Virus record (IMG/VR): IMGVR_UViG_3300044568_003163
Location: 140,879-204,878 of that record
DNA from: a virus
Length of the DNA stretch: 64,000 bases
Reading direction: 5' to 3' (one strand)
Shown: one piece after another, positions 9,069 to 22,974 of the stretch
How positions within the stretch are numbered: the first letter of the stretch is position 1
Layout: every line of letters begins with the position of its first letter
Made by a program: the position numbers and the translations under genes
The notes under the pieces: model-generated
Seen by the model: only the letters and a program-made list of their open reading frames with translations
Told to the model about the DNA's origin: nothing
Database searches by the model: none

Positions 9069-9595
9069 TATCTATTGAATTTAAAAGATTTATCTAGATT
9101 GTTTAAATCAAAATCAGCTAGCATGTTATCAGCAGCACCAAAGATTTGTAGCATATCAAAGATTCCTTGGTCTTTCCAATCTTGAATTTGACGGTCACGT
9201 TTTACTGGTCGCATATCACCTAGTTGATGAAATCTCATGTGATTTTTACAAATAAGAGCCACGGTATCTGGATCTGCATTGTTTTGAGTACAAAAAGCTC
9301 TAACTTGCATATTGTCCATAATCAATGTGAATGCAACATCATCATGTCCTGGAGAAGTAGGAAATCCAGTTTTAGGATTTTGTTTTACTGTATCGAATTT
9401 TGCAATATCATGTAGAACTCCTGCCATAATTAAATTAGGATTGCCGGTAGGAATTAGCCTATCCGTAACAATTTGAATGTGATGAAAAGCACTTGGCTCA
9501 GGATGAAAATCCGGACGCTCTCTAAGAAATTTCAATTGCTCTAACTTACGTTTGATAATGTGAGGAGCAGTATCGACGATTTGAGTAAAGTTCAT
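9068..9595 (-). CDS. HD-domain phosphohydrolase
   Basis: 175 residues with the complete HD metal-site pattern: His in AFHHIQIVTD (about 38), His-Asp in GVLHDIAKFD (62-63), His in SPGHDDVAF (84), His in KNHMRFHQLG and Asp in FGAADNM. HD enzymes hydrolyse nucleotides or cyclic nucleotides, or act on tRNA CCA ends; the substrate cannot be read here. First gene after a terminator/operator/promoter module, so it heads a transcript. Confidence 0.85.
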   Translation of the reverse strand: MNFTQIVDTAPHIIKRKLEQLKFLRERPDFHPEPSAFHHIQIVTDRLIPTGNPNLIMAGVLHDIAKFDTVKQNPKTGFPTSPGHDDVAFTLIMDNMQVRAFCTQNNADPDTVALICKNHMRFHQLGDMRPVKRDRQIQDWKDQGIFDMLQIFGAADNMLADFDLNNLDKSFKFNR

Positions 9596-10803: not shown

Positions 10804-11525
10804 AATAGGGATATTAATAAGTATTCTTTTGGTAGGCCGTTAATTTTTTCACCACCAAATTTAATGATTGTTGAAGCCGGATATTCAATAGTTGAACCAG
10901 ATTTTATCATATCTCTTAAATTACTGTAAGGATCGTGTATAGTAGCAGTATTGATATTTGTATTGCAACCAGCGATTGGAGCATTACTAGAACCTGTCAA
11001 ATTATTATCTAAATAATTTTCAAAATCAACTTTAACATTATCGTAAGACTTAACATTTGAATCGACATAATCTTTCGTAGAAAATAAATCAGCAAAATTT
11101 CTTTCGGTCATTTTATCAAATTCTAAATCTGCGTGATTAGTCCAATCAGTTTCATCGGTTACCGACATCGAGAAAAACTCAGCAGTTCGCAAAGAATTTC
11201 CTCTTTGATTATTACCTATATTGGCAACATCAACAATGATTTGTAGTTTTTCTGCTCGGCTATTCCAACTACCATTAATCTTCTTGTTGAATGCGTCGAT
11301 TTGTCCATATAGACCTCTGCCAATTTTCATAGGTCTTCCACTACTTCGATTTGAAGATTCCGGAAGAACTAACAATGTATCACAGCTAAGCAAATCATCG
11401 TGACTGTACTTAGTTGTACCTTTGTACTCTACTATTTCAATAGGTAGAGTTTTTAAATACGATCTAACTCGCTCCACCAAATGTGGCGAAGCGTTATTAG
11501 ATTTCGCAAAGTATACTCTTTTCAT
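10800..11525 (-). CDS. Unknown protein with Rossmann-like, deoxyribosyltransferase-like N-terminus
   Basis: 241 residues. N-terminal pattern KRVYFAKSNNASPHLVERVRSYLKTLPIEIVEY, then LLSCDTLLVLPE and IGRGLYGQIDAF, resembles the small Rossmann-type fold of nucleoside 2-deoxyribosyltransferase/TIR-like proteins (opening strand, strand-Asp, then a G-x-G-x-x-x-x-I helix). The C-terminal half is Asn/Asp-rich and unrecognised. The fold resemblance is my inference and needs structure prediction. Confidence 0.6.
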   Translation of the reverse strand: MKRVYFAKSNNASPHLVERVRSYLKTLPIEIVEYKGTTKYSHDDLLSCDTLLVLPESSNRSSGRPMKIGRGLYGQIDAFNKKINGSWNSRAEKLQIIVDVANIGNNQRGNSLRTAEFFSMSVTDETDWTNHADLEFDKMTERNFADLFSTKDYVDSNVKSYDNVKVDFENYLDNNLTGSSNAPIAGCNTNINTATIHDPYSNLRDMIKSGSTIEYPASTIIKFGGEKINGLPKEYLLISLL

Positions 11526-16661: not shown

Positions 16662-16718
16662 TAAAAGTAATCAATCTAGACGACAATGTGAAATGAATTT
16701 GTATAAAGTTATTAACAA
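16662..16718 (-). promoter_or_regulatory. Operator-type promoter module 3
   Basis: TTGTTAATAACTTT box (16705-16718) and -7-like TACTTTTA (16662-16669) at exactly 39 bases. The -7 box ends in A instead of G but matches module 7. Confidence 0.6.
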
Positions 16719-17242
16719 AATTCAATTATCTCATAATCATCTAGACTGAGTCTAGGTTCAGCAATTTCTGGTTCATGAAACTTTAAACATTCGTGAATGT
16801 ACTTTGAATGGTCAATCCATTTTTCGTTTGCATAACCTAATGTAAGGTGAAAGCTGAAATATGGAATTCTACTAGTTCCGCAAATTTCACGTATAGATTC
16901 AGCATCCGGTGACCATACTCGTAACCACCAGTGTTCACCGTTGGTTCTTGGTGAAGGGTCTATATAAAATACTATTTCTTTTTTATCAAACAACTTAGCG
17001 CCTTCGTCAAAATTAGGAGTTTCCCTTTCCGAATCATTAATGAAAGTAACGTGAGAACCTCTGATAGGTTTGTTTAATTCTAAGTTGAATCGCTTTTTAA
17101 TAAACCATGCATAATAGTTGTGCAGCTCGTCATTAGTCAAAATGACAGCTACTCGTTTCCAAGAAGCTTGTGCGTTGTGCTTCTTTGTTTTATTAGGAGG
17201 CTGGAATTCCATCACTCCTTTGACCTTTATTAACTTACTCAT
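16712..17242 (-). CDS. 2H phosphoesterase-superfamily protein (LigT / Acb1-like)
   Basis: 176 residues with two H-x-T/S motifs at the spacing of the 2H fold: RGSHVTFIN (His64) and YFSFHLTLGYA (His132). The strand VAVILTNDELHNYYAWF precedes the first motif. 2H enzymes open cyclic phosphates or cleave 2',5'/3',5' linkages. The T4 family member Acb1 (57B) destroys CBASS cyclic-nucleotide signals and supports an anti-defence reading. An RNA 2',3'-cyclic phosphodiesterase role is the alternative. Substrate not decidable from sequence. Confidence 0.8.
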   Translation of the reverse strand: MSKLIKVKGVMEFQPPNKTKKHNAQASWKRVAVILTNDELHNYYAWFIKKRFNLELNKPIRGSHVTFINDSERETPNFDEGAKLFDKKEIVFYIDPSPRTNGEHWWLRVWSPDAESIREICGTSRIPYFSFHLTLGYANEKWIDHSKYIHECLKFHEPEIAEPRLSLDDYEIIEFC

Positions 17243-19130: not shown

Positions 19131-19161
19131 CAACAAAAGGCTTACCGTAAAGCAAGCCTTT
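19131..19161 (-). terminator. Rho-independent terminator
   Basis: Stem AAAGGCTT/AAGCCTTT, then TTTGTTG on the minus strand, ending the 19179-19541 transcript. The 16 bases across the descending arm and tail are shared with the terminator at 51279. Confidence 0.7.
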
Positions 19162-19687: not shown

Positions 19688-21124
19688 TTACTGAATAACA
19701 CTGTATCTCTCAGTATCAATAGCTTTAAGCATAATACTCATAGGACTCATAGAATCTCCACTAAGCACTGCTTTAAGAATTGACGGTGAAAATCCACTGA
19801 TTAAAGCGGTACCATTCTCAGTTGCTCTAACTGGAACGTTGTCGTGTCGAGAAACTAAGTTCCAAAACACAATCTTTGGCATTGCATAGCCAGAATCAGA
19901 GTATTTTCTTTCGATCATACTGATAGCATTGTCACTTATACGTGACGCTTGGTTGAATTCCATGTCAGACATAATCAATAGACATGTTGGCATTTGGTCA
20001 ATCGAAACGTTATGTTTGATTGCTTGTTCAAGAATCATATCGAAGGTAGCTTCTAGATTCGTTGACATACCCCATTGAGCACGTTCTAATTGTTGCATTC
20101 TCGAACGTAAATCTCCTGTTAGGTACTCTAACTTTGGTCTTTCGCTGAAAGTTACAAATGCATCTTTGAAGGGACCTTCATTTCTTTCAGAAATATAAAG
20201 ACCTAATGAGATACAAACGTCTAGTGCAGAAACTGAACCAGAAACAGTTGTAGACATTGAACCAGAAACATCACAGATAGGTAAAACCATTTCTTTAGAT
20301 CCTTCCATAAAGTTAGGAAGAGCTTTCCATTGCTCGTTTGATAACGTAGTGTCACCGTAAGACATTGTTTTTGTAACGTCATATGGATATACGGCACCTG
20401 CATTAACTTTAGTTTCACCTTTAACTAGTGACTCTTTGTAAGCCTCGAATGCTTCGGCATCATTTTTACCAAAAGCTTTTGAGTATCTCGCCATTGCAAC
20501 AGAAGGTATATGAGCATAGTTAACATTACCAAAGTCTTTGTTACATAAGTTAGTTTCAATAACGTTAGTTAAAGAAACAATCTTAGTTCTAAATTCTTTA
20601 GGTGATAAGCCCATTTTGGTTCTGATTTTGTTAGCAATAGCCTTTTTATCAGCCGATACTTTACCACCAGTTCGAGGAATCCATTTTGCAAGTAATCCAT
20701 TACCTTCTTCAAGATTATGAATAACTGTAGCAATTGCAGCATCTTCTACCGCAGTTCCGAATGTTACGAATATGTCATCCCATCTACCGAACTCGGCAAT
20801 CAAATGAATGTTTTCAATAACTTCGTTAGGATAAACCTCAGAAGCATGACGTAAAAGTACTCGGAAAGCTTCACGTTCTCCTGCTCCACCTCTAACGTCT
20901 CTTCCCCAATACATCAATTTTCTTGTGATTAAAGGATTCTCATTATGTGCAGCTTCAAACTTAGCTATCAAACGTGATTTACCTTCATCGGTTTTCATTT
21001 GAGCTCTTACCGCTCCCATCACGAAAAATAAATCTACACAAGCATTAAGAGAAGTGGTAGATGTTACCATTCCATTTTCAGTAGTTGTGTTTTTAGTACG
21101 CATTGCATCAACAAAAGTTGTCAT
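19688..21124 (-). CDS. DUF2828 / Ro60 (TROVE)-like protein with vWA domain
   Basis: 478 residues. The N-terminal helical part carries TTENGMVTSTTSLNACVDLFF, YWGRDVRGGAGEREAFRVLL, IAEFGRWDDIF, LAKWIPRTGG and IPSVAMARYSKAFG. These are the blocks of DUF2828, which are also the HEAT-repeat blocks of Ro60/TROVE proteins. The C-terminal half is a von Willebrand A domain with an intact metal site: DVSGSMS (285-291), Thr in WGMSTNLEATF and Asp in MSDMEF. Ro60 proteins form a ring that binds Y RNAs and misfolded RNAs, and bacterial Y RNAs are encoded next to the Ro gene. Here a structured, gene-free region lies directly upstream. RNA-binding function in this phage is inferred. Confidence 0.85.
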   Translation of the reverse strand: MTTFVDAMRTKNTTTENGMVTSTTSLNACVDLFFVMGAVRAQMKTDEGKSRLIAKFEAAHNENPLITRKLMYWGRDVRGGAGEREAFRVLLRHASEVYPNEVIENIHLIAEFGRWDDIFVTFGTAVEDAAIATVIHNLEEGNGLLAKWIPRTGGKVSADKKAIANKIRTKMGLSPKEFRTKIVSLTNVIETNLCNKDFGNVNYAHIPSVAMARYSKAFGKNDAEAFEAYKESLVKGETKVNAGAVYPYDVTKTMSYGDTTLSNEQWKALPNFMEGSKEMVLPICDVSGSMSTTVSGSVSALDVCISLGLYISERNEGPFKDAFVTFSERPKLEYLTGDLRSRMQQLERAQWGMSTNLEATFDMILEQAIKHNVSIDQMPTCLLIMSDMEFNQASRISDNAISMIERKYSDSGYAMPKIVFWNLVSRHDNVPVRATENGTALISGFSPSILKAVLSGDSMSPMSIMLKAIDTERYSVIQ

Positions 21125-21155
21125 AGTTTTTGGTTTTAAATATGTTAAAAAATTC

Positions 21156-21214
21156 AGAGTGATATATCGGTTTCAAATTAAAAGTTTGATGATAAAAGTT
21201 GCTGAAATCACTCT
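21156..21214 (-). other. Leader hairpin of the Ro60-like gene
   Basis: Perfect 8-bp closing stem AGAGTGAT/ATCACTCT around a 43-base interior holding a smaller hairpin (TCAAA/TTTGA). It lies between the terminator at 21226-21289 and the start codon at 21124. It could be the mRNA leader, a second small RNA, or a binding site for the encoded protein. Confidence 0.5.
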
Positions 21215-21225
21215 TTGTATTGTTT

Positions 21226-21289
21226 AAAAAAAAATTATCAGGGTACGGTTGGTTTTCAATTGCTGAATGTTAATTGCTGAATGTACCCT
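21226..21289 (-). terminator. Rho-independent terminator of the candidate RNA
   Basis: Stem AGGGTAC/GTACCCT (21240-21246 with 21283-21289); on the minus strand the descending arm is followed by TGATAA and nine T. Confidence 0.75.
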
Positions 21290-21529
21290 TTGTAATTATA
21301 ATCGACAGATTGGCTGTTTAGATTTTGTGAAGCATCTAGAAACTTCCTCAGTAGTTTTGAAGTGGGATTTGATACCACCAGTCGCTTTGTTTTAAAGTGA
21401 TGACTAAACTCACTTAATCAACCGGCTTTTGAATTTCACGATTGATTTCGTTAATGGTTATCTGTAGATAAGTTGTTTGTTTGCTGAACCCAATCTTTGA
21501 TATATTGTAAGAACGTATGTCGTTGTAAC
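21226..21529 (-). ncRNA. Candidate structured small RNA next to Ro60-like gene (Y-RNA-like?)
   Basis: About 300 bases with no open frame. It is bounded upstream by a GAAACTAA/CATATAATA promoter (21536-21565) and downstream by a strong terminator (stem AGGGTAC/GTACCCT, then nine T). Within it is a 9-bp stem at 21416-21447 (AATCAACCG/CGATTGATT on the plus strand, one G-U), an AAGTGA/TCACTT hairpin near 21396-21415, and a GTGG/CCAC arm near 21364-21381. A GAAG/CTTC hairpin lies near 21330-21347. The octamer TTGCTGAA (plus strand) occurs three times in the RNA and once more in the gene leader. Position beside a Ro60-family gene is where bacterial Y RNAs lie. No tRNA could be folded convincingly. 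Expression and function are inference. Confidence 0.5.
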
Positions 21530-21535
21530 TAGAAT

Positions 21536-21565
21536 TATTATATGTGAGCTAATTTATTTAGTTTC
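21536..21565 (-). promoter_or_regulatory. ECF-type promoter GAAACTAA-N13-CATATAATA before the candidate RNA
   Basis: Same two boxes and same 13-base gap as at 11917-11946, and also the same TCA immediately before CATATAATA. The next start codon is over 400 bases away, so the promoter most simply serves a non-coding transcript. Confidence 0.7.
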
Positions 21566-21567
21566 AA

Positions 21568-22091: not shown

Positions 22092-22529
22092 TTACTGAGT
22101 TGGTTCATTGATTAGTGATTGTAAATATTTTATACGGTCGTTAACTGCTTCTTTATATTGTTCTGATGCAAATGCAGATAGCTCGCTTATTGCTAATTTG
22201 ATAGCCAGCTCACTGTACTTAGCTTGAACTTCTCCTATGGTGATGTTAGTTTTCCAATCACATACTTCACAAATCTCATCTACCCATTCTGAATAATCAT
22301 GTTGGATTCTTTCTCTAACATTCATTGGCTCAACATCAATCCAAGGTTTAATCCAACAAAAAGGAATGTTGATTCTCATTTCATCTAATCCTAGACCAAA
22401 TAAGACATCATAAACATCTTTAGTAAGTACATCTATTATGATGCCTTCTGTGCCTCTTAGTACATTTTGGTAATCCGAGTCACATATAACTCTATCTCCC
22501 TTTTTGTATACTTTTGATATATCGGTCAT
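22092..22529 (-). CDS. Hypothetical protein, 145 aa
   Basis: N-terminal small barrel (YKKGDRVICDSDYQNVLRGTEGIIIDVLTKDVYDVLFG), then a helical C-terminal region. C-x-x-C (EICEVCDW) in the middle. Overlaps the receiver-like gene by 38 bases. Function unknown. Confidence 0.55.
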   Translation of the reverse strand: MTDISKVYKKGDRVICDSDYQNVLRGTEGIIIDVLTKDVYDVLFGLGLDEMRINIPFCWIKPWIDVEPMNVRERIQHDYSEWVDEICEVCDWKTNITIGEVQAKYSELAIKLAISELSAFASEQYKEAVNDRIKYLQSLINEPTQ

Positions 22530-22944
22530 AATCTTTTAATGTTTGGTTGATTCTTTCTCTGCCTGCAGGATTCATCGAGTGAACGATGCATTCTGGTAAT
22601 GCGATTCCATTATCAATACAGAATTGAACAAACCATCTTGCAGATTCATTTCCTGTATCTTCTTTAAATTGAGTTGCCTTAACATTATAATTGTCAATTC
22701 CATGATACATTGATGGGTCGTAATGCTCATCGGCTAAATCGTGATCGAATGAAACTAATTCTGGAAATTGACCGTTGGCAAATCTTTCAGCTACTTCGAT
22801 AACGAATGCTGAATGAGACCTAACAGTTATCCATTCCCGAGTTCCGTATCGAGCCTCTCTCATGTAATTAGTACAGTCAGTTGGTACTCTAATATCGTCT
22901 AAAAATAGACTGTAAGTTTTGAAGTTTATAATGTGATTTCTCAT
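22492..22944 (-). CDS. Cyclic-phosphate-processing receiver-domain-like protein
   Basis: 150 residues from the ATG at 22944 (a TTG at 22959 is less likely). YSLFLDDIRVPTD, then VRSHSAFVIEVAERFANGQFPELVSFDHDLADEHYD, ARWFVQFCIDNGIALPECIVHSMNPAGRERI, match the receiver-fold family named cyclic-phosphate processing receiver domain. In it the two acidic pairs and the DHDL and HS-x-N motifs line the site. The family is associated with RNA repair and nucleotide-signal conflict systems. Anti-defence or RNA-end processing is plausible, together with the 2H and Thg1 genes. Confidence 0.75.
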   Translation of the reverse strand: MRNHIINFKTYSLFLDDIRVPTDCTNYMREARYGTREWITVRSHSAFVIEVAERFANGQFPELVSFDHDLADEHYDPSMYHGIDNYNVKATQFKEDTGNESARWFVQFCIDNGIALPECIVHSMNPAGRERINQTLKDYDRYIKSIQKGR

Positions 22945-22974
22945 AATTGTTATATGCAATAAAGGTGTTTTTGA

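What the first reader, a model, noticed from the sequence alone, without database searches (positions are those of the whole stretch)
19688..21565. Phage Ro60-like protein with an adjacent candidate Y-like RNA
Seen: a DUF2828/TROVE-type protein with vWA metal site. Directly upstream lies the only 440-base gene-free region of the window, with an ECF-type promoter at 21536-21565, a 9-bp stem and other hairpins, and a strong terminator at 21226. A further hairpin lies in the gene leader. Known: bacterial Ro60 genes sit beside Y RNA genes and the pair handles RNA quality control. Inference: a phage-encoded Ro60/Y-RNA-like RNP, transcribed by the phage sigma factor. I do not know of such a described phage system.
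Basis: partly seen in the sequence, partly recalled or inferred. Interest (0 to 1): 0.88.

Follow-up and report, generated by a model that had tools for sequence, protein, structure and literature searches.

The report
Phage Ro60-like protein with hairpin RNAs
This phage carries a Ro60-like RNA-binding protein beside three small hairpin RNAs of a class (stem, ACAGCAA-type signature, variable loop) that also lies next to this protein in many other phages and in bacterial RNA-repair operons, and that looks like an RNA class so far thought unique to social amoebae.

Summary
The finding is real, and larger than described. The protein (19688-21124, -) is DUF2828/DUF7788; its predicted structure matches only Ro60 proteins, and its vWA metal site is invariant. 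The 443-base gap upstream does not hold one 300-nt RNA with an ECF promoter and a strong terminator. It holds three tandem hairpins, each AAG + 7-8 bp stem + TTCAGCAA + variable loop + closing stem + CUG. A fourth, with a T-arm-like loop, lies in this phage's 35-tRNA cluster. CAGCAA is the most enriched 6-mer around this gene in 40 phage loci. The stem covaries (6 of 7 pairs). The hairpins lie upstream or downstream of the gene in phages of many hosts, some with tRNA-mimic loops, and in clostridial loci with RtcB/RlaP/WYL genes. The Rfam model of Dictyostelium class I RNAs, reported as unique to social amoebae, independently hits these sites (15 of 29 hits within 1 kb of the gene, 0.23 expected), though below its cut-off. 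Best reading: a phage Ro/Y-like RNP for RNA quality control or repair. Phage Ro60 and phage Y RNAs are known; this signature, its operon context and the amoeba link appear new, but the key 2014 paper could not be read. No expression or binding data.

The parts
19688..21124 (-). Ro60-like protein, 478 aa (DUF2828 + DUF7788, phrog_850), TROVE-like ring plus vWA domain with MIDAS
21125..21567 (-). non-coding stretch that holds the three hairpin RNA candidates, directly upstream of the Ro-like gene
21307..21496 (-). H1: AGATTGG-GTTCAGCAA-(176 nt between the stem strands)-CCAATCT-G; signature TCAGCAA at 21487-21481; ortholog in L094 keeps stem and motif
   Evidence: R1 E=0.021 without being in the training set
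21240..21289 (-). H2: AGGGTAC-ATTCAGCAA-(36 nt between the stem strands)-GTACCCT-G; signature at 21280-21274, second TCAGCAA at 21266-21260; ortholog in L094 has an A-U to G-C compensatory change
   Evidence: match to RF01414 at 24.7 bits, E=0.16
21156..21214 (-). H3: AGAGTGAT-TTCAGCAA-(43 nt between the stem strands)-ATCACTCT-G, followed by T6; signature at 21205-21199; ortholog in L094 has an A-U to U-A compensatory change

Best explanation
The locus encodes a Ro60-type ribonucleoprotein: a ring-shaped DUF2828 Ro-like protein and a set of small Y-like RNAs (three beside the gene, a fourth in the tRNA cluster). Each RNA closes on itself through a 7-8 bp basal stem. The unpaired CAGCAA just after the 5' strand of that stem is the likely protein-recognition site. 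The variable loop is the functional module: tRNA-mimic in some copies, other or unstructured in the rest. By analogy with bacterial Rsr/Y RNA, the RNA would gate the ring or tether it to a nuclease or repair enzyme, so that misfolded or cleaved RNAs, probably tRNAs, are degraded or repaired during infection. Shown here: fold, signature, covarying stem, adjacency, tRNA-mimic loops in relatives, and linkage to RtcB/RlaP in bacteria and to RtcB in two phages. Inferred: transcription, binding, and the role in repair or quality control. The 0.8 is for the RNP reading; for the specific role in tRNA quality control or repair I would say 0.45.
For: Fold: AF2 pLDDT 81; all 7 PDB matches at E<=1e-3 are Ro60/TROVE entries, incl. 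phage phiLo Ro60, D. radiodurans Rsr, Xenopus and human Ro60. RNAs: CAGCAA is the top 6-mer near the gene in 40 loci (81 vs 24.4 expected) and ACAGCAA the top 7-mer (41 vs 7.0); 57 of 81 near sites have a stem of at least 7 bp, against 17% on the opposite strand and 7-23% for non-overlapping permuted motifs. An unassisted consensus fold of 28 hairpins gives only the 7-bp stem, 6 of 7 pairs compensatory, 57 double changes vs 17.5 +- 2.9 in shuffles. In the phage's own 294 kb the only R1 hits with E<0.1 are H1-H4, next E=2.4; H1 and H4 were not used for training. T4, T5, SPO1 and phiKZ give no R1 hit; DUF2828 was not found in T4, SPO1 or phiKZ, in a search that rang in no control genome, and was not tested in T5. 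12 of 17 Ro-bearing phages give hits. tRNA-mimic loops: Archie, Klebsiella phi1_175008, L012, L030. RNA-repair linkage: RtcB, RlaP or WYL/WCX in 38 of 80 bacterial loci, RtcB also in Listeria AG20 and a 735-kb phage.
Against: No RNA-seq or binding data for these hairpins. In Listeria phage CKA15 the hyper-abundant ncRNAs were proposed as Y RNAs; judged from related AG20, they seem to lie 1-2 kb upstream, not at the CAGCAA hairpins. The protein does not match Pfam TROVE and shows 12-16% identity to Ro60 at TM about 0.5-0.6. H1-H3 show no clear tRNA-like module. No RtcB in this phage; it has an RNA ligase at 72186-72884 of the record. Nine of 40 loci lack a near hairpin; some of these have them elsewhere.
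Confidence: 0.8

Rival explanations
1. The hairpins are cis-regulatory leader elements: the Ro-like protein binds its own 5' leader and represses its own translation or causes attenuation.
For: In this window and many phages the array sits just upstream of the gene on the same strand.
Against: In many relatives the array is downstream of the gene, several kb away, or in the tRNA cluster; copy number reaches 7 (L213); loops carry tRNA-like modules.
Confidence: 0.1
2. The hairpins are processing or decay signals of tRNA-rich transcripts (RNase sites or stabilisers), only incidentally near the Ro gene.
For: Many arrays lie in or next to tRNA clusters.
Against: T4, SPO1, phiKZ and T5 (tRNA-rich, from general knowledge) give no R1 hit (small control set); strong same-strand clustering beside the Ro gene; conserved unpaired signature rather than only a stem.
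Confidence: 0.05
3. Canonical YrlA-type Y RNAs of the Salmonella kind, i.e. a plain new member of the known RNA family. (This differs from the best explanation in the RNA's classification, not in the RNP reading, so the two are not exclusive.)
For: Some phage copies carry the YrlA-like T-arm/D-arm module; full-length YrlA matches of 36.4 and 34.3 bits.
Against: No match reaches the YrlA cut-off of 69 bits; the YrlA consensus basal part is cggCgaAUGC...cUuGucGccg without CAGCAA; most copies, incl. H1-H3, have no such module.
Confidence: 0.1

Closest known systems
Bacterial Rsr / Y RNA (YrlA, RF02553) and the rsr-yrlBA-rtcBA RNA-repair operon
   Same: Ro60 fold; small RNAs closed by a basal stem next to the Ro gene; tRNA-mimic loop in some copies; RtcB beside the locus in bacteria (also RlaP), WYL/WCX regulators upstream
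   Different: Protein is DUF2828/DUF7788, not Pfam TROVE; basal signature is CAGCAA, not the YrlA one; several copies per locus; this phage has no RtcB
Thermus phage phiLo Ro60 (PDB 9l5y) and mycobacteriophage 'Ro-like RNA binding protein'
   Same: Phage-encoded Ro60 fold; the mycobacteriophage proteins are homologs of the window protein and carry the CAGCAA hairpins downstream
   Different: phiLo Ro60 was not matched by sequence with the A1 profile, only by fold; its RNA partner, if any, was not examined here
Dictyostelium class I RNAs (RF01414)
   Same: AAG start, 6-7 bp stem, 11-nt CCUUACAGCAA next to the 5' strand, variable loop, CUGU end; RF01414 hits cluster at the Ro-like genes
   Different: All phage scores are below the RF01414 cut-off (best 37.1 vs 41.5); eukaryotic host; known binder there is the RRM protein Rnp1A; a DUF2828 partner in Dictyostelium was not tested
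Listeria phage CKA15 Rsr-like protein and proposed Y RNAs (PMC12282133)
   Same: Rsr-like phage protein (homolog in related AG20 found here); authors propose a phage Rsr/Y RNA pair
   Different: Their candidate RNAs are other, very abundant transcripts, apparently 1-2 kb upstream; no CAGCAA signature is mentioned in the passages read; the protein was also found in purified virions

Membership tests
Ro60/TROVE protein | HEAT-repeat ring plus vWA fold of Ro60 | tested here: met
   seven PDB hits at E<=1e-3, all Ro60/TROVE; TM about 0.5-0.6, rmsd 7-9 A
Ro60/TROVE protein | MIDAS DxSxS...T...D in the vWA domain | tested here: met
   D285, S287, S289, T355, D387; all but D387 and T355 are in the DxSxS run, all five are invariant in 23 sequences
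Ro60/TROVE protein | Pfam TROVE PF05731 match | tested here: not met
   no match; it is PF11443/PF25043
Ro60/TROVE protein | Binds Y RNA and misfolded RNA | not testable with these tools
   needs biochemistry
YrlA Y RNA (RF02553) | Score above the Rfam cut-off (69 bits) | tested here: not met
   none in the window or relatives; best 36.4 bits in a relative
YrlA Y RNA (RF02553) | tRNA-like module in the loop | tested here: inconclusive
   met in some relatives; H1-H3 no; H4 has a T-arm-like TCGG-TTCAACT-CCGA, weak tRNA match E=0.46
YrlA Y RNA (RF02553) | Encoded next to a Ro60 gene, basal stem formed by both ends | tested here: met
   that the RNA ends lie at the stem is inferred, no ends were mapped
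Dictyostelium class I RNA (RF01414) | Stem + 11-nt CCUUACAGCAA motif + AAG start + CUGU end | tested here: met
   A/A/G start and G,T after the stem in most of 159 strict hairpins; exact 11-mer 20 times, all on the gene strand, 0.7 expected (many are orthologs); in the window the motif is the TTCAGCAA variant and the end is CUGU in H1, CUGA in H2 and H3
Dictyostelium class I RNA (RF01414) | Score above the Rfam cut-off (41.5 bits) | tested here: not met
   best 37.1 bits; window H2 24.7 bits
Dictyostelium class I RNA (RF01414) | DUSE promoter, Rnp1A binding, dictyostelid origin | not testable with these tools
   no dictyostelid genome or protein held; the window itself is phage DNA

The most novel reading that the evidence does not exclude
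The CAGCAA RNAs of phages and bacteria and the class I RNAs of Dictyostelium are one RNA class, defined by AAG-stem-(CCU)UACAGCAA-loop-stem-CUGU and recognised by DUF2828-type Ro-like proteins. Class I RNAs would then be Y-like RNAs of a Ro-type RNP rather than an invention of social amoebae, and tailed phages would be a large reservoir of this RNP.
Probability: 0.4. Interest if true: 0.9.

Novelty: new variant of a known kind. Interest (0 to 1): 0.8.

Why it matters
It gives hundreds of phages annotated only as carrying an 'RNA-binding protein' (681 records in one collection) a testable RNA partner with a simple signature. It places the same pair in bacterial RtcB/RlaP repair loci. It also suggests a partner and function for the abundant class I RNAs of social amoebae, whose mode of action is still open.

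Tried and rejected
Whole-gap folding (z -0.07) carries no signal and was set aside. Rfam at gathering thresholds finds nothing in the window. A candidate at 68939 in the own tRNA cluster was rejected as neighbouring tRNA parts; weak YrlA matches inside tRNA clusters are confounded by the T-arm of one tRNA plus the D-arm of the next. A candidate at 70487 is a tRNA-Asp. The ECF promoter: looser versions of the pattern are not enriched. PADLOC and NCBIfam give nothing for the protein. Blastn of the gap against phages: no match. The CKA15 transcriptome was considered as expression evidence and not used, because its abundant RNAs appear to lie elsewhere.

Full report
THE PROTEIN. The ORF 19688-21124 (-) encodes 478 aa with Pfam DUF7788 and DUF2828 and PHROG 850 'RNA-binding protein'. 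Relatives were found in 681 annotated phage records, from Vibrio, Escherichia, Mycobacterium, Listeria, Staphylococcus, Campylobacter and others, all below 60% identity. An alignment of 23 phage proteins keeps the vWA MIDAS residues D285, S287, S289, T355 and D387 invariant. Sequence searches of the PDB do not find Ro60, and Pfam TROVE does not match. The AlphaFold2 model (pLDDT 81.3, pTM 0.74) has seven PDB matches at E<=1e-3, and all are Ro60/TROVE structures: Thermus phage phiLo Ro60 (best, 3e-8), a Trove domain, Xenopus Ro60 with RNA, D. radiodurans Rsr and human Ro60. TM is 0.5-0.6 and identity 12-16%, so this is a Ro60 fold from a separate sequence subfamily.

THE RNA CANDIDATES. The gap 21125-21567 as a whole is not more stable than shuffles. 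Read on the minus strand it holds three tandem units of one plan: AAAG, a stem of 7-8 bp, TTCAGCAA, a variable loop, the closing strand, then G. H1 is 21496-21307 (176 nt between the strands), H2 21289-21240 (36), H3 21214-21156 (43). The nearest relative found, L094 (71% identical protein), has orthologs of all three plus one extra copy; H2 shows A-U to G-C and H3 shows A-U to U-A across the two phages.

NOT CHANCE. In 40 phage loci the 6-mer most enriched within 1000 nt upstream or 800 nt downstream of the gene, against the rest of the same loci, is CAGCAA (81 observed, 24.4 expected), and the top 7-mer is ACAGCAA (41 vs 7.0). Of the 81 near sites 57 have a stem of at least 7 bp at the right place, against 35% of far sites (which include true distant arrays), 17% on the opposite strand, and 7-23% for permuted motifs; one control (ACAGCA) overlaps the real motif and behaves like it. 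Twenty-eight hairpins were aligned. Most were taken as the first motif downstream of the gene, without any stem criterion; the window, L094 and L105 copies were chosen directly, and the first motifs of L144, L146, L152, L153, L168 and L171, which do not close within the stretch, were left out, as were near-identical loci. RNAalifold on its own predicts only the 7-bp stem. Six of 7 pairs have compensatory changes, with 57 double-change cells against 17.5 +- 2.9 in shuffles and at most 16 when slid. A covariance model from this alignment (R1), run over the phage's own 294 kb, gives H3, H2 (both in training), H1 (E=0.021) and a fourth site H4 (E=0.066); the next is E=2.4. H4, at 64613-64515 (-) of the record, lies in a cluster of 35 tRNA genes and has a T-arm-like TCGG-TTCAACT-CCGA in its loop. 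Phages T4, SPO1, phiKZ and T5 give no hit with the model. A search of T4, SPO1 and phiKZ for DUF2828 found nothing, but that search rang in no control genome either. Of 17 Ro-bearing phages 12 give hits, some of them several kb from the gene. The control set is small.

DISTRIBUTION AND CONTEXT. The hairpins are upstream of the gene in Listeria AG20, Campylobacter Los1, Fusobacterium FNU3 and others, and downstream in mycobacteriophages, Staphylococcus, Klebsiella and many relatives of the window phage. 47 of 80 further viral loci and 55 of 80 loci from bacterial assemblies (mostly clostridial, mostly MAGs, possibly including prophages) have strict hairpins, with up to seven copies (L213). Some loops are tRNA mimics: Rfam tRNA matches inside the loops of L012 and L030, a T-arm plus D-arm in mycobacteriophage Archie, and full-length but sub-threshold YrlA matches in Klebsiella phi1_175008. 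In clostridial loci the pattern seen is WYL and WCX regulators, the RNA array, the Ro-like gene, then RtcB or RlaP; 38 of 80 bacterial loci have at least one of these within the fetched flanks, and RtcB is also near the gene in AG20 and in a 735-kb phage. This is like the neighbourhood known for Rsr/Y RNA in Salmonella (rsr-yrlBA-rtcBA, PMC7790460). The window phage has no RtcB but an RNA ligase next to its tRNA cluster, a cyclic-phosphate-processing receiver-domain protein at 22492-22959 and a weak 2H phosphoesterase match at 16712-17242.

RELATION TO KNOWN RNAs. The Rfam YrlA consensus has a different basal signature, and no match reaches its cut-off. The best outside resemblance is to Dictyostelium class I RNAs: start AAG, short stem, 11-nt motif (CCUUACAGCAA in the Rfam consensus), end CUGU, described as unique to dictyostelids (PMC7919456). 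The RF01414 model, which was built without phages, was run over 37 phage records or contigs. Of the 29 best matches (E below 0.1), 15 lie within 1 kb of the Ro-like gene on its strand; 0.23 are expected (the binomial P of 2e-24 treats hits as independent, which related copies are not). All are below the Rfam cut-off (best 37.1 of 41.5 bits). In the own genome only 150 of 348 candidates were scored in that search; in a small search H2 scored 24.7 bits, E=0.16. In 159 strict hairpins the base after the stem is G in 129, followed most often by T, and the stem is most often preceded by A, which the finder did not demand. Common descent, convergence on the same protein surface, or coincidence of a short motif cannot be told apart here.

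MECHANISM. Shown: fold, signature, stem, adjacency, repair-gene linkage in relatives. Established for relatives (PMC7790460, PMC11277228): Rsr is tethered by Y RNA to PNPase, Y RNA binds the outside of the ring, and single-stranded RNA enters the ring. Inferred: CAGCAA plus stem is the recognition site, loops are effector modules, and the RNP handles damaged or misfolded RNA, probably tRNA, during infection. Two literature facts bear on this: overexpressed Ro-like gp53 of mycobacteriophage LeBron inhibits M. smegmatis (PMC13148394), and the CKA15 homolog was found in purified virions (PMC12282133).

LIMITS. No transcript or binding evidence exists for these hairpins in anything read here. The CKA15 ncRNAs appear to lie 1-2 kb upstream of its Ro gene, judged from the related AG20 sequence. 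Chen et al. 2014 and two Wolin reviews, which describe phage Y RNAs, are not in the library, so prior description of the CAGCAA signature in phages cannot be excluded.

Noticed in passing
G000 63592-71268 (-) (L081 3592-11268), outside the window: Cluster of 35 tRNA genes, one of undetermined type (anticodon agcg), with an RNA ligase gene (72186-72884) beside it and hairpin H4 inside.
   Followed up: partly
22492-22959 (-): cREC_REC, a cyclic-phosphate-processing receiver-domain protein (E 9e-13), about 1.4 kb upstream of the Ro-like gene.
   Followed up: no
16712-17242 (-): Protein with a sub-threshold match to a 2H phosphoesterase domain (E 6e-4) and two H-x-T-like motifs.
   Followed up: no
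L174-L253 (e.g. L193, L189, L208, L213): Clostridial loci with WYL/WCX regulators, CAGCAA RNA arrays, the Ro-like gene and RtcB or RlaP; likely a bacterial RNA-repair operon with a DUF2828-type Ro protein.
   Followed up: partly
L049 4000-5050 (Listeria phage AG20): Long non-coding stretch with two sigmaA-like promoter sequences, probably the counterpart of the hyper-abundant CKA15_059-061 transcripts; no CAGCAA in it.
   Followed up: no
L071 / W10 363108-363868 (-), 735-kb phage: Three further CAGCAA hairpins about 21 kb upstream of the Ro-like gene; one scores 37.1 bits with the Dictyostelium class I model.
   Followed up: partly
L077 (KVP40) 9302-9417, 10968-11091, 11102-11214: Features annotated as pseudo-tRNAs of 113-124 nt, in length like YrlA-type tRNA mimics; may be misannotated Y-like RNAs.
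   Followed up: no
19136-19161 (-): The only terminator-like site found in the region, an 11-bp stem downstream of the Ro-like gene.
   Followed up: no
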